Shown: in pieces, positions 45 to 5,879 of the stretch
Numbering within the stretch: position 1 is the stretch's first letter
Layout of the letters: every line of letters begins with the position of its first letter
Origin: Dehalococcoidia bacterium
GTDB lineage: Bacteria; Chloroflexota; Dehalococcoidia; Dehalococcoidales; W498
DNA: 8,657 nucleotides
Direction of reading: 5' to 3'
Assembly (NCBI GenBank): GCA_030608125.1
Contig: JAUWEU010000023.1
Location: forward strand, 1 to 8,657
Position numbers and translations under genes: made by a program
The notes under the pieces: model-generated
The model's input: the letters and a program-made list of their open reading frames with translations, nothing else
The model's database searches: none
What the model was told of the DNA's origin: nothing

Positions 45-141
45 GGGAGCGGATGAGTCCCGGTGGGCTTCGCGGACTTCAAATCCGTTGGGGGGCATAA
101 GAAGTGTCTTCGGTGGGTTCGACTCCCATGCGCTCCCGCCA
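45..141 (+). tRNA. selC: tRNA-Sec (anticodon TCA, reads UGA)
   Basis: This is the selenocysteine tRNA, charged with serine by SerRS, converted to Sec-tRNA by SelA and carried to the ribosome by SelB. The gene is 97 nt including an encoded CCA (139-141) and discriminator G138; the E. coli tRNA is 95 nt. The anticodon loop is CTTCAAA (77-83) with anticodon TCA at 79-81. The T-loop is TTCGACT between GTGGG and CCCAT. The acceptor arm starts GGGAGCG and pairs with CGCTCCC. The long variable arm (about 90-111) can fold into a 7-bp, G-U-rich stem. D-arm and loop layout match the extended bacterial tRNA-Sec pattern. It is on the strand opposite selA-selB and about 1.2 kb from the 3' end of selB. An overlapping reading frame across it is not a gene. 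Confidence 0.97.
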
Positions 142-420: not shown

Positions 421-714
421 ATGACCGTGAACGACCTTCAAGAGTTCGCCAGGCTATTGGAAGACATAGCTAGGGAAAATAAGCTGTATGAGTCAGCGGT
501 GGTGTTAAGTGGGTCGCAGGATTTTATTTATTCCCATCGTGAAGAGCTCCTACAACAATACCCTGACCAGTGGATTGCGGTGTATAGAAAAGACATAATA
601 GGAAATGACAAGGACCTATTACGGCTGGTACGTAAGCTCCGTACTAGTGGTGTACCGTTAAGACATATCGCTCTTGAAATGCTCAGCCGTGAGGAGATTC
701 CTCTTGCCCTCTAA
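421..714 (+). CDS. Small DUF5678-like protein
   Basis: This is a 97-residue soluble protein with no signal peptide or membrane segment. Residues 1-45 are charged and probably helical. Residues 47-95 (YPDQWIAVY, then a charged helix, then a short hydrophobic end) resemble the DUF5678 pattern, a compact alpha/beta unit with a 'Y-P-x-x-W-I/V-A' strand and a following KxLLxLVRKLR-type helix. Its function is unknown. ATG at 421 directly abuts GAGGG (416-420), which is too close for a normal ribosome site. GTG at 427, six bases after it, is an equally good start and would give 95 residues. The 3' end overlaps the next gene by 11 bases if that gene starts at TTG 704, suggesting coupled translation. 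In my recollection, DUF5678-like genes often sit next to small aspartyl-protease-like genes. The family call rests on pattern only. Confidence 0.6.
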   Translation: MTVNDLQEFARLLEDIARENKLYESAVVLSGSQDFIYSHREELLQQYPDQWIAVYRKDIIGNDKDLLRLVRKLRTSGVPLRHIALEMLSREEIPLAL

Positions 715-1361: not shown

Positions 1362-3212
1362 CTAGTACAGCACCCGCTCATCACCAACACGGCGGGTTAT
1401 CTTCTTACCATCTAGATGCTCAAGGAGAGCCTGGGCATACTTTCGGCTGGTGTTAAACATGTCCCGTACTTCAGCCAGAGTTATTTTATCCTGTGCCTTA
1501 ATGTGTGCCGTGACCCGGTCTACCATCTCATTGTAGACCGAAGTGGCAAATACCACACTGCCGTTCACTTTCACCACCTCACCCCGCTCAATGAGCCAAT
1601 TAAGCAAGTCAGGCTCAGGTATTAGCTCACTGGGTGGAGCATAGGGATTTTGAGCCAAGGACTTCAGAAAGGCATCTATCTTAGCCTGTTGCGCCTGGGT
1701 AAGCTGAACTTTGTGAGTAGGAAGGCGAACAACCAACCCTTCTTCGACCAGAACACCCTCATCGAGGAGCCTTAGTAAAATCGCCGGGGCATGTGTCCTT
1801 GACCTCAGTTTGTGACTCAGTTCCACTTTAGGTATGCCGCTACGGGTCGGGAACCTCTGATGATAGTCCTGGACTATGCTGACTACTTTCCGGGTCAGAC
1901 GTTCCCAGCCAGAGCTGGTCAGGAGAAGGCAGACTTCTCCTTGACCTATCCTTACTACCTTTTCCTGCTGGATAAGGGCTTCTATGACCGGCTGGACTTC
2001 ACTAACAGATAGGTCACTTTGAGCCAAAAGAGCGGATAGTTCCAAAGGTTGCCTTGTCGCCAGCAATGCCATAACCACCTCTTCGGCAGTGCCCTCCTCC
2101 TTGACTCTCAGGCTTTGAATTATGGTCGGGCGAAAGCGGCGAAGCCGTGTGGCGTGGGCATCAATCACTTTGCCACCCCCCAGAGTATCCATTGGAGAAC
2201 GGATAATGAAGTGGTCGCCATTGACCACGGCTACTGGCTTGTTCAGTCGCAATTGAACCCAGGTAACCTCTCCCGGTTTAAGCTGCTCTGCCTCCAACAG
2301 GCGCACTTTAGCCATTGCCTCGGCTGCCCCGGTATGGAAGCTAACAGTAGCATTATGGCGCAGGGGACGAGGATGATAGTGGAGCAGACGAAGCCTCGCC
2401 GTCAGCATTGTCGTAGGGGCTAGCCAACCAGGCGTGGTTAGCACATCACCGCGCTGCAACTGAGAGGTGGTAACCCCAACCAAGTTTGCCGCAACCCTGC
2501 TCCCAGGATTGGCAGTATCAATGTGGGCTTTATGCGTTTGTAACCCCCGCAGACGTGACTTCAGCCCAGCAGGGACAATTTCCACCTCCTGTCCCATTGT
2601 GAGCGAACCATCGATTAATGTTCCGGTGACTACGGTACCAGAGCCAGCAATAGTGAAAACCCGGTCTATCGGCAGCCTAGGTCGGCCTATGTCTTTCCTC
2701 GGCACAGTAACGTCCAGAAGTTTATCGATAGCTGAAACCAGTTCAGCCAAGCCTTCCCCGGTTACTGCTGAGACAGCGATGATGGGAGCCTGGGACAAGG
2801 TAGTGGGGATAAGCAGCTCCTCTATCTCCATACTGACCAAGCTCAGCCACTCATCATCCACAAGGTCTTTCTTAGTGATAGCCACGATTCCTTTTGCTAT
2901 TTCGAGCAAGTCTAGAATTGCCAGGTGCTCCCTGGTTTGGGGTCTCACCCCCTCGTTAGCAGCGACAATTAGTAGGGCTAAGTCGATACCACCCACCCCA
3001 GCCAGCATGTTTTTGATGAAGCGCTCATGCCCGGGCACATCAACGATTCCGACCTCTCGCCCGCTAGGTAGCTTTAGCCAAGCGAAACCAAGGTCAATGG
3101 TCATGCCCCGCTCTTTCTCCTCACGTAGCCGGTCGGGGTCTATCCCAGTCAAGGCATGCACTAGAACTGACTTGCCGTGGTCTATATGCCCGGCAGTGCC
3201 TAATACAAACAT
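1362..3212 (-). CDS. selB: Selenocysteine-specific elongation factor SelB
   Basis: SelB is the dedicated GTPase that binds Sec-tRNA-Sec and the mRNA SECIS hairpin and delivers Sec to UGA in the ribosome. The protein has 616 residues (E. coli 614). GTPase motifs are clear: G1 GHIDHGKS (8-15), G2 RGMTIDLGFA (35-44), G3 DVPGH (58-62), G4 TKKD (113-116, the SelB form of NKxD), and G5 SAV near 142. EF-Tu-like beta-barrel domains follow. The C-terminal third is a string of winged-helix domains; the last, ending RDMFNTSRKYAQ...ITRRVGDERVLY, matches the SECIS-binding domain. ATG at 3212 is preferred because AAGGTGG lies 5 bases before it; an in-frame GTG at 3221 would add three residues. It is 27 bp downstream of selA in one operon. 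It ends in TAG, so UAG is a normal stop here. The long open frames opposite it are shadows. Confidence 0.97.
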   Translation of the reverse strand: MFVLGTAGHIDHGKSVLVHALTGIDPDRLREEKERGMTIDLGFAWLKLPSGREVGIVDVPGHERFIKNMLAGVGGIDLALLIVAANEGVRPQTREHLAILDLLEIAKGIVAITKKDLVDDEWLSLVSMEIEELLIPTTLSQAPIIAVSAVTGEGLAELVSAIDKLLDVTVPRKDIGRPRLPIDRVFTIAGSGTVVTGTLIDGSLTMGQEVEIVPAGLKSRLRGLQTHKAHIDTANPGSRVAANLVGVTTSQLQRGDVLTTPGWLAPTTMLTARLRLLHYHPRPLRHNATVSFHTGAAEAMAKVRLLEAEQLKPGEVTWVQLRLNKPVAVVNGDHFIIRSPMDTLGGGKVIDAHATRLRRFRPTIIQSLRVKEEGTAEEVVMALLATRQPLELSALLAQSDLSVSEVQPVIEALIQQEKVVRIGQGEVCLLLTSSGWERLTRKVVSIVQDYHQRFPTRSGIPKVELSHKLRSRTHAPAILLRLLDEGVLVEEGLVVRLPTHKVQLTQAQQAKIDAFLKSLAQNPYAPPSELIPEPDLLNWLIERGEVVKVNGSVVFATSVYNEMVDRVTAHIKAQDKITLAEVRDMFNTSRKYAQALLEHLDGKKITRRVGDERVLY

Positions 3213-3239
3213 CGCATCCACCTTTTTTGGTTTTGGTCA

Positions 3240-4634
3240 TCACTGGGTTTGCTCTGAACTAGCGGCTAAATCCCGAAGCGCTTGAAGTATAGCCTCATCC
3301 TCTTCAGGAAGCACCGAGCGGGGGTCAAGGAGCAAAACATTGTCGCTAATCCGACCGATGACTGGTGGCTCTCCGTTCCGCAGCCTTCGAGCCAGCGTTT
3401 GAGCCATACTTTGCCCTTTTCTCTTGCCTTCTCCACTAATGGCTACAAGTCGGGTAGGCAGGGTGCCCCCAGGCAAACTGCCGCCTCCTACCATGCTCTC
3501 TCCTTCTATCACCTGAGCCAAGCCATTGAGAGCCTGAGCCCACAGCCTAGCCCGCTGGTCAATCTCCTCCAGTGTTGCCGAAATCATTCGCCATACCGGG
3601 ATGTTAATTACCGCTGCATCTTTTAAGTAATGAATTAAGGTAGCTACCAGACCAGCCAGCCTTATCTTGTCAATTCGCACTGCCCGAGCTAACGGGTGTT
3701 TCTTTAATTTATCAACCAGCTGTTTCTTACCCACGATAATCCCTGCTTGAGGACCGCCCACGAGCTTGTCTCCAGAAAAGAAGGTCAACCCGGCACCAGC
3801 GGCAACGCTTTGTTGTACCATCGGCTCCGGGTCAAGCCCAAAGGCAGTCGTGTCCAGAAAGCAGCCACTACCTAAGTCGTCCAAGACTGGAAGGTTATTC
3901 CGTCTGCCGATTGCCACTAACTCCTCAAAGGTAACCTCATGAGTGAACCCCATCAGCCTGAAGTTACTGGCATGAACACGCATTAGCGCTGCTGTCCGTG
4001 GGTTAATCGCCTGTTCGTAATCAGCAGCATAGGTACAATTAGTGGTTCCCACCTCAATCAACTTCGCTCCGCTTTGGCGCATCACATCAGGGATACGAAA
4101 GCCACCACCAATCTCTACAGCCTGACTCCGGGAGACGATTACCTCTTCTTTCTTAGCCAAGGCGGTAAGACCTAAAAGTACAGCAGAGGCATTGTTGTTT
4201 ACTACCAGTGCTGTCTCAGCCCCACTTAGCTGGCATAAAATCTGCTCGATATGCGTGTGGCGAGACCCCCTCATTCCACTGTCAAGGTCATACTCCAGAT
4301 TACAGTAGCCCTTGGCAACTGTGTCCATGGCGGCTGTTGCCTCTTTGCTGAGCGGCGCCCGTCCTAGATTAGTATGGAGCAGTACCCCAGTGGCATTAAT
4401 TACGGGAAGCAGGCTGGGATTTTCTAGGGCATATACCTGGGCAGAAACAGATTCCACTATCTCATCAATGGAGGGGCACGGATTACCGATGGCAATAGAA
4501 AGGCGGTCATGTTCGAGGCGTTGCCTAACTAGGTTTACCAGCAAGATATGTGGGTAAGTCTCCTCAAGCTGCTTAATCCGCTCGTCGGAGAGTACCCTGT
4601 CCACACTGGGAAGTTGGCGAAACTGACTATCCAT
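3240..4634 (-). CDS. selA: L-seryl-tRNA(Sec) selenium transferase (Sec synthase)
   Basis: SelA is a PLP enzyme that converts Ser-tRNA-Sec to Sec-tRNA-Sec using selenophosphate, as a large homo-oligomer in the cytosol. The protein has 464 residues (E. coli 463). The N-terminal tRNA-binding region includes LPSVDRVL. Core motifs are INATGVLLHTNLGRAPLS (about 79-96), NNNASAVLLGL, EIGGGFRIPD, EVGTTN, DDLGSG and FSGDKLVGGPQAG. Lys290 of the last motif is the expected PLP Schiff-base lysine (Lys295 in E. coli). The usual SRGEL before VEIGG reads SRSQA here, a departure from E. coli that I cannot interpret. ATG 4634 is chosen over an in-frame TTG at 4637. No strong ribosome site is visible and the candidate promoter leaves only about 6 bases of leader. 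The gene is first in a selA-selB operon, divergent from selD. Its TGA stop overlaps an out-of-frame ATG that is not used. Confidence 0.97.
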   Translation of the reverse strand: MDSQFRQLPSVDRVLSDERIKQLEETYPHILLVNLVRQRLEHDRLSIAIGNPCPSIDEIVESVSAQVYALENPSLLPVINATGVLLHTNLGRAPLSKEATAAMDTVAKGYCNLEYDLDSGMRGSRHTHIEQILCQLSGAETALVVNNNASAVLLGLTALAKKEEVIVSRSQAVEIGGGFRIPDVMRQSGAKLIEVGTTNCTYAADYEQAINPRTAALMRVHASNFRLMGFTHEVTFEELVAIGRRNNLPVLDDLGSGCFLDTTAFGLDPEPMVQQSVAAGAGLTFFSGDKLVGGPQAGIIVGKKQLVDKLKKHPLARAVRIDKIRLAGLVATLIHYLKDAAVINIPVWRMISATLEEIDQRARLWAQALNGLAQVIEGESMVGGGSLPGGTLPTRLVAISGEGKRKGQSMAQTLARRLRNGEPPVIGRISDNVLLLDPRSVLPEEDEAILQALRDLAASSEQTQ

Positions 4635-4646
4635 CAATGCCTGACT

Positions 4647-4782: not shown

Positions 4783-4829
4783 ACCAAACGAGATTGGACT
4801 ATTCCCCAACTTCAATAATGGAGGGCTAG

Positions 4830-5879
4830 ATGGGTAACAGGATACCCCCTCGCCTAACCGGAAGTGTCAGTGGCGCAGGTTGAGCTTCTAAGTTAGGTCC
4901 GGGAGACCTATGCAAAGCTTTATTGGGATTGCCTTTAATCTCTGACCCGAATGTGATTCGAGGTATGGAAAGCCTAGATGACGCTGGCGTTTACAAGCTG
5001 ACCGATGAGCTGGCTATCATCCAGACCGTCGATTTCTTTACGCCTATAGTGGACGAGCCTTACGCTTTTGGGCAGATTGCCGCGGCTAATGCACTGAGTG
5101 ATGTCTATGCTATGGGAGGCAAGCCGCTAACCGCCATGAATTTAGTCTGCTTTCCAATAGAGTCTCTGGATATTTCAGTCTTGCAGGATATCCTCAGAGG
5201 CGGAGTGGATAAGCTGCGTGAGGCAGGGGTGACGCTGGTCGGGGGACATAGTATAATCGATGCTGAGTTAAAGTATGGTCTTTCGGTCACAGGTACCGTG
5301 CACCCCAAACGGCTGGTGACCAATGGCGGGGCTAAGGCAGGAGATAAACTGATACTAACCAAGCCGTTGGGAACTGGAATCATAAGCACTGCTGTAAAAG
5401 CAGGGGTGGTCAATGAGGAGCTGGTACGGAAGGTTACAAGGTGCATGGCAACCTTAAATGACAAAGCCTCGGAGCTAATGCAGGAGGTGGGGGTTCATGC
5501 TTGTACTGACATCACTGGTTTCGGTCTTCTTGGACACGCCATCCAGGTAGCTGAGAGCAGCCAGGTAGGCATCGAACTTCATCTAGCTTCAATTCCCTAC
5601 TTTTCTGAAGTAATACAGTTCTCACAACAGGGATTTTGTCCAGGCGGACTATATCGAAACAAGGATTTTTACTCCAACAAGGTGAAATTTATTAACCAAA
5701 TCCCAGAATATATGCAGGATATCCTATTTGATGCCCAGACCTCCGGTGGTTTGCTAATCTGTCTCAGCCCTAGGAAAGCAGAACTGCTGCTTGACAGGCT
5801 GCAACAAGCGGGTGTGGAGGATGCAGTTTCCGTTGGAGAGGTCGTCAGCGAACCAAAAGGAATGGTTACTTTAATATGA
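4830..5879 (+). CDS. selD: Selenophosphate synthetase SelD, itself a Sec-containing protein
   Basis: SelD converts selenide and ATP to selenophosphate, AMP and phosphate, supplying SelA. Read with TGA (4881-4883) as Sec, the protein has 349 residues (E. coli 347). ATG 4830 is preceded by GGAGGG (4820-4825). The N-terminus is ...SVSGAG-U18-ASK21-LGPGDL..., matching the E. coli glycine-rich loop with catalytic Cys17 and Lys20. The metal and ATP ligands Asp51 (DDAGVY), Asp68 (TVDFFTP), Asp91 (ALSDVYAMGG) and Asp227 (TDITGFGLLGH) fall at the same numbers as in E. coli. GGHS is at 138-141 and TSGGLL lies near the end. Without Sec decoding only a 17-residue peptide would form. The TTG at 4923 that a standard gene caller would use lies past the catalytic loop and would give an inactive protein. 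The gene is transcribed away from selA-selB and stops at TGA 5877-5879. Confidence 0.95.
4881..4919 (+). promoter_or_regulatory. Bacterial SECIS element with Sec UGA codon in selD
   Basis: The UGA at 4881-4883 is followed by a two-part hairpin. The lower stem is AGCTT (4883-4887) with AAGCT (4915-4919). An internal loop follows, then a perfect 6-bp upper stem TAGGTC (4894-4899) with GACCTA (4905-4910) closing the 5-nt loop CGGGA (4900-4904). The apical loop begins 17 bases after the UGA, within the spacing known for bacterial SECIS elements, and carries Gs as expected for SelB recognition. The whole element is translated as residues 18-30 of SelD. Confidence 0.88.

What the first reader, a model, noticed from the sequence alone, without database searches (positions are those of the whole stretch)
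4830..4926. SelD is a selenoprotein hidden from standard gene calling
The SelD frame continues 31 codons upstream of the first apparent start (TTG 4923) through one TGA at 4881. That TGA sits in SGAG-U-ASK, where E. coli has Cys17 followed by Lys20. A start codon with a strong ribosome site (GGAGGG, then ATG 4830) lies upstream, and Asp51/68/91/227 come out at E. coli numbering only with this extension. Sec-type SelD is known in several lineages, so the class is not new, but a default annotation of this genome would miss the catalytic loop.
Basis: partly seen in the sequence, partly recalled or inferred. Interest (0 to 1): 0.75.

Follow-up and report, generated by a model that had tools for sequence, protein, structure and literature searches.

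The report
Selenium-containing selenophosphate synthetase, mis-annotated short
A bacterial gene for the enzyme that activates selenium contains an in-frame stop-like codon that is very probably read as selenocysteine, so ordinary annotation cuts off the catalytic end; this is a well-known kind of gene, and its relatives show the RNA signal for it in two alternative positions.

Summary
selD runs from ATG 4830 to 5879 with one in-frame TGA (4881-4883) at the E. coli Cys17 position. In the 80 related loci kept from one genome scan the codon there is TGA in 74 and TGC in 6. In the order of a close relative 89 of 92 rows that cover the site contain one TGA. The nearest genome found (91% protein identity) has the same TGA and hairpin, so a sequencing error is excluded. 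tRNA-Sec, selB, selA and part of yedF lie in the window. A hairpin 16 nt past the UGA meets the published bacterial SECIS rules. The 120 listed database proteins all start after the TGA, so the mis-annotation is real and common. Sec-type SelD has long been known: a new member of a known kind. What my searches did not show in print is that the SelD SECIS occurs in two overlapping registers one codon apart, each far above synonymous-codon expectation (56 vs 7.4 and 52 vs 14.9 of 102; one or both present in 24 of 24 further loci). There is no protein evidence.

The parts
4820..4825 (+). ribosome binding site GGAGGG
   Evidence: sequence; nearly the same (GGAGGA) in the 91% relative L112
4830..5879 (+). 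selD, 349 codons plus stop, UGA at codon 18 read as selenocysteine
4881..4883 (+). in-frame TGA (Sec18; E. coli Cys17 position)
4894..4910 (+). bacterial SECIS upper stem-loop: 6 bp (4894-4899 with 4905-4910), loop CGGGA 4900-4904, 16 nt after the UGA; register A
4884..4918 (+). whole predicted SECIS with lower stem 4884-4887 / 4915-4918, -9.7 kcal/mol
45..137 (+). tRNA-Sec (selC), anticodon TCA
   Evidence: Rfam RF01852 73.3 bits; ARAGORN 45-141
1362..3221 (-). selB, Sec-specific elongation factor with winged-helix domains
   Evidence: TIGR00475 351.7 bits; PF09106, PF09107
3240..4637 (-). selA, Sec synthase
   Evidence: TIGR00474 556.5 bits
8298..8657 (-). yedF, selenium-metabolism protein, cut by the window end
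   Evidence: TIGR03527 153.5 bits

Best explanation
The gene encodes selenophosphate synthetase whose catalytic Cys17-type residue is selenocysteine. Translation starts at ATG 4830; at UGA 4881 the window's SelB, carrying Sec-tRNA(Sec) made by its SelA and selC, binds the hairpin at 4894-4910 and inserts Sec instead of terminating; translation goes on to 5879. The enzyme makes selenophosphate from selenide and ATP, which SelA needs, so SelD depends on its own product. Shown by sequence: the frame, the conserved codon, the hairpin and its selection across relatives, the sel genes. Inferred from established knowledge of the pathway: SelB binding, Sec insertion, the enzyme's activity and the feedback loop.
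For: Codon at this site: TGA 74 of 80, TGC 6 of 80 (Paenibacillaceae) in the loci kept by one scan. Order-level: 89 of 92 rows that cover the site have one TGA inside; I read 29 of those loci and the TGA is at this codon in 27; the three full-length rows without a stop are TGC, TGC and TGT. In a second phylum 107 of 109 rows that cover the site have one TGA inside. The context in the 102 Sec loci is [A/S/G]-G-U-[A/G]-[S/C/A]-K, though the scripts looked for G-U-x-x-K. Extension scores +20 bits in TIGR00476. selC, selB and selA are in the window. The hairpin meets the bSECIS rules quoted in PMC13188914 (passages): loop 5 nt, stem 6 bp, G within the first two loop positions, 16 nt spacing, MFE -9.7. 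Synonymous bias over 75 Sec loci: codon +5 third base T 63 of 75 against 15.5 expected, codon +6 third base purine 74 of 75 against 31.1, codon +8 third base C 69 of 75 against 33.1.
Against: No peptide or enzyme data. The window's own hairpin taken alone is not exceptional: z -0.91, 39 of 200 shuffles as stable; z -0.81, 39 of 200 in synonymous resampling. No Rfam SECIS family matches. The host genome is not held, so other selenoproteins of this very organism could not be checked.
Confidence: 0.97

Rival explanations
1. Sequencing or assembly error: a Cys codon (TGC/TGT) misread as TGA.
For: Cys forms exist at the same site (6 of 80; L111, L126, L139).
Against: TGA in 74 of 80 loci of many assemblies, including the 91% relative L112 with the same hairpin. 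A Cys codon should have given full-length gene calls, and none of the 120 listed is full length.
Confidence: 0.01
2. The true start is at TTG 4923 or Met46 and the enzyme is a loop-less SelD-like protein; the upstream frame is chance.
For: The 120 listed database entries all start after the TGA, 47 at residue 22 and 37 at residue 46.
Against: Residues 8-17 (RLT..V.GAG) recur in the relatives read; dN 0.11 against dS 0.53 over codons 1-17 to L112, few sites; +20 bits in TIGR00476.
Confidence: 0.01
3. TGA is reassigned genome-wide (Trp or Gly), so this is an ordinary codon.
For: An in-frame TGA exists.
Against: TGA ends selD, selA and PEPCK in this window; tRNA-Sec and selAB are present; where the homologs read have no TGA the residue is Cys, not Trp or Gly.
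Confidence: 0.005
4. UGA acts as a selenium-controlled switch that terminates unless selenium is present, so full SelD is made only then.
For: Follows from Sec insertion needing selenophosphate (established knowledge); not tested here.
Against: No data here; it adds to the best explanation rather than replacing it.
Confidence: 0.3

Closest known systems
Sec-containing SelD, e.g. the Sec-SelDs of PMC1794560 and PMC4561486 (passages)
   Same: UGA at the Cys17 position with a SECIS right after it (here)
   Different: Nothing essential; in place of the E. coli HGAGCGCK the window has SGAGUASK, so the second Cys is Ser
E. coli SelD (3u0o) and the SelD of 2yye/2zod
   Same: Homology over nearly the whole length, E 9.8e-69 and 4.5e-75
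   Different: The chains aligned have Cys at the site; that 2yye is Aquifex SelD and has Sec in nature is recalled, not tested
Bacterial SECIS consensus model, rules as quoted in PMC13188914
   Same: Loop, stem, spacing, G position and energy all fit
   Different: Relatives use two registers one codon apart over nearly the same peptide

Membership tests
SelD (TIGR00476, selenide, water dikinase) | Score over the curated cut-off | tested here: met
   389.9 bits, cut-off 125
SelD (TIGR00476, selenide, water dikinase) | Catalytic Cys/Sec and Lys of the N-terminal loop, conserved Asp residues | tested here: met
   U18, K21, D51, D68, D91, D227 against 3u0o and relatives; the roles of these residues are recalled
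SelD (TIGR00476, selenide, water dikinase) | Selenophosphate synthesis activity | not testable with these tools
   needs an assay
Bacterial selenoprotein | In-frame UGA aligned with Cys in some homologs and UGA in others | tested here: met
Bacterial selenoprotein | bSECIS: 3-9 nt loop, 4-16 bp upper stem, G in first two loop positions, 16-37 nt spacing, MFE at most -7.5 | tested here: met
   5 nt, 6 bp, CG, 16 nt, -9.7 kcal/mol
Bacterial selenoprotein | Sec machinery (selA, selB, selC, selD) in the genome | tested here: met
   all in the window
Bacterial selenoprotein | Sec found in the protein | not testable with these tools
   needs mass spectrometry or 75Se labelling

The most novel reading that the evidence does not exclude
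The SECIS of selD is not one fixed hairpin: it exists in two overlapping registers whose centres differ by exactly one codon (A: GGUC-loop-GACC, as in the window; B: CCRGG-loop-CCUGG). The registers have replaced each other repeatedly, through mRNAs that can form both, while the peptide hardly changes. Where both fit, the mRNA could be a two-state SelB target.
Probability: 0.55. Interest if true: 0.5.

Novelty: new member of a known kind. Interest (0 to 1): 0.3.

Why it matters
For the window: default annotation drops the catalytic loop of this enzyme, and the same happened in the 120 database entries listed, so surveys based on predicted proteins could wrongly score these organisms as having a SelD without its catalytic residue. 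Beyond it: the two SECIS registers, with both-register intermediates and natural Cys forms whose hairpin is weakened, give a ready comparative test of which RNA features SelB needs.

Tried and rejected
Single-sequence folding of the window hairpin is not significant and was not used as evidence alone. Rfam at gathering and at relaxed threshold gives no SECIS. Genome-wide TGA reassignment and sequencing error were considered and rejected (see rivals). I searched formate dehydrogenase alpha in six related genomes: rows with one in-frame TGA occur in G301 (two), G002 (two), G003 (one) and G341 (one), all but one of them below the family's cut-off, so SelD is probably not the only selenoprotein of the group; I did not inspect those TGAs. 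I first counted the G at the start of codon +10 in register B as support, then dropped it: the 5 bp criterion forces it. The phylum-wide draw was not tallied because its list was cut. Literature: searches for bSECIS/SelD/hairpin and for bacterial SECIS/apical loop gave lists of 5 and of 15 of 27 papers, of which I saw passages of some; the search for register or covariation matched 14,858 papers on other words and none of the 12 listed holds 'bacterial SECIS', so it says little; searches for Dehalococcoides plus selD and for Chloroflexota plus SECIS returned no paper. The supplement of PMC4561486 that shows SelD SECIS structures was not readable here, so it may already show both registers.

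Full report
What is there. The frame from ATG 4830 to TGA 5879 codes for a 349-residue SelD with one TGA, 4881-4883, at codon 18. An in-frame TAG at 4827-4829 sits directly before the ATG, and GGAGGG at 4820-4825. The protein passes TIGR00476 with 389.9 bits against 369.9 without the extension (cut-off 125). Against E. coli SelD (3u0o) residue 18 aligns with Cys17, K21 with Lys20, and after a one-residue gap D51, D68, D91 and D227 keep E. coli numbers.

Relatives. One scan of the species-genome collection gave 579 confirmed stretches, of which the best 80 were kept. The codon at residue 18 is TGA in 74 and TGC in 6, all six Paenibacillaceae. The order of G301 (a genome whose SelD is 75% identical) has SelD in 95 of 151 genomes, 97 rows; five rows begin past residue 18; of the other 92, 89 have one TGA inside and three none. 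The table says only that a TGA lies inside; I read 29 loci of that set: 27 have TGA at codon 18, one TGC, one TGT; three of the 29 repeat loci of the first set. The third row without a stop is TGC (L111). In a second phylum, that of G534 (the genome of L060), 104 of 118 genomes match, 111 rows, two of which begin past residue 18; of the other 109, 107 have one TGA inside. In a phylum-wide draw around G001, 311 of 400 genomes match; its list was cut and I did not count rows. The nearest genome, G419, has 91% identical SelD with the same TGA and the same stem-loop sequence, and selB-selA-selD in the same arrangement at about 90% DNA identity.

Machinery. tRNA-Sec lies at 45-137, selB and selA at 1362-3221 and 3240-4637 on the minus strand, and a cut yedF at the window end. 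L003, titled Dehalococcoidales, has the same order tRNA-Sec, selB, selA, selD. In G419 no tRNA was found in the 14 kb taken. The host is not held; by the SelD tree its nearest named kin are Dehalococcoidia. TGA is a real stop for selD, selA and PEPCK in the window, so this is not a changed code.

The SECIS. After the UGA the window folds into a 6 bp stem (4894-4899 with 4905-4910) with loop CGGGA, 16 nt from the UGA, plus a 4 bp lower stem, -9.7 kcal/mol. This fits every rule of the bacterial model as quoted in PMC13188914 (passages). Alone it is not unusual (39 of 200 shuffles are as stable; z -0.81). Across 75 Sec loci it is: mean z of codons +1 to +14 against synonymous resampling is -1.11, against -0.22 and -0.04 for two control stretches of the same genes; 21 of 75 reach 10 or fewer of 200 resamples, against 4 and 3. 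In the six Cys loci the mean z is +0.61. Third bases that matter for pairing are strongly skewed (figures under evidence).

Two registers. The set is 102 Sec loci: the window, 74 and 27 (L082 left out as a copy of L001, L104 not caught by that script; L024 and L086 are the same sequence and both stayed in). Stems of at least 5 bp pile up at two centres: register A (sum of paired positions 38), 56 observed against 7.4 expected from synonymous resampling; register B (sum 44), 52 against 14.9; no other centre exceeds 6 observed. The centres are three bases apart, one codon. 36 loci have A only (the window among them), 32 B only, 20 both, 14 neither; five of the 14 have a 4 bp A stem, and seven of the other nine are distant loci from the phylum-wide draw. 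Where codon +5 is not Gly, so that the GG of register A is gone, 25 of 29 loci are in register B, two in A and two in neither, though most of these B loci form one clade. Compensation: with AGT at codon +5 the A register needs U at position 25; L096 and L097, and in the other phylum L167 and L169, have TTA there and pair; L154 and L171 have AGT with CTG, do not complete A and have B; L103 has AGT and neither. L109 replaces U15-A23 by G-C.

Fresh set. Because the registers were chosen on the first set, I ran another: of 30 loci from the phylum of G534, one was the genome of L060, one (L170) was not read by the script and four repeated earlier loci; the remaining 24 have A (8), B (10) or both (6), none neither; centres 38 and 44 were seen 14 and 16 times against 1.5 and 2.8 expected. 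Near relatives of first-set species may remain in it, and it shares that phylum with much of the first set. On a SelD tree (110 rows, which includes the peptide columns over the hairpin) B needs 10 changes and all five labels 31, against 60.9 for shuffled labels. The three Cys forms in the order have no stem of 5 bp in either register (4 bp at most), whereas all 22 Sec loci scored have one; L121, L125, L129, L134 and L137 were read but not scored.

Judgement. That SelD can be a selenoprotein, and that selenoprotein genes are usually misannotated, is in print (PMC1794560, PMC4561486; passages). The window is therefore a new member of a known kind. The register switch is the only part that my limited searches did not show in print, and it rests on comparative sequence alone.

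Noticed in passing
window 421-714 and 674-1192: A DUF5678 ORF (PF18929, 23.8 bits) followed by a frame that looks like a retropepsin-type protease (VDSGSD motif, recalled) interrupted by TAG 950-952; it lies between tRNA-Sec and selB. No match to it among the loci printed (L001-L030, L081-L111) or in L141, many of which have short flanks.
   Followed up: partly
L111 (G003:C84) and L003 (G003:C53): One MAG holds both a TGA (Sec) selD and a TGC (Cys) selD; the Cys form keeps the Ala of the Sec form (GCACK). Contamination of the MAG is possible.
   Followed up: partly
L011 and L078: One Syntrophorhabdaceae MAG holds two distinct Sec-type selD genes.
   Followed up: no
G165:C68:7946-8039 and 12427-12520: Two tRNA-Sec matches over the cut-off on one contig, both within 7 kb of selD.
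   Followed up: no
L126 and L139: Two further selD genes of the order with Cys codons (TGC and TGT) and a weakened SECIS hairpin, likely Sec-to-Cys changes.
   Followed up: partly
L108: A stop-free selD in a 743-residue open frame, perhaps a fusion, with TGC at the site.
   Followed up: no
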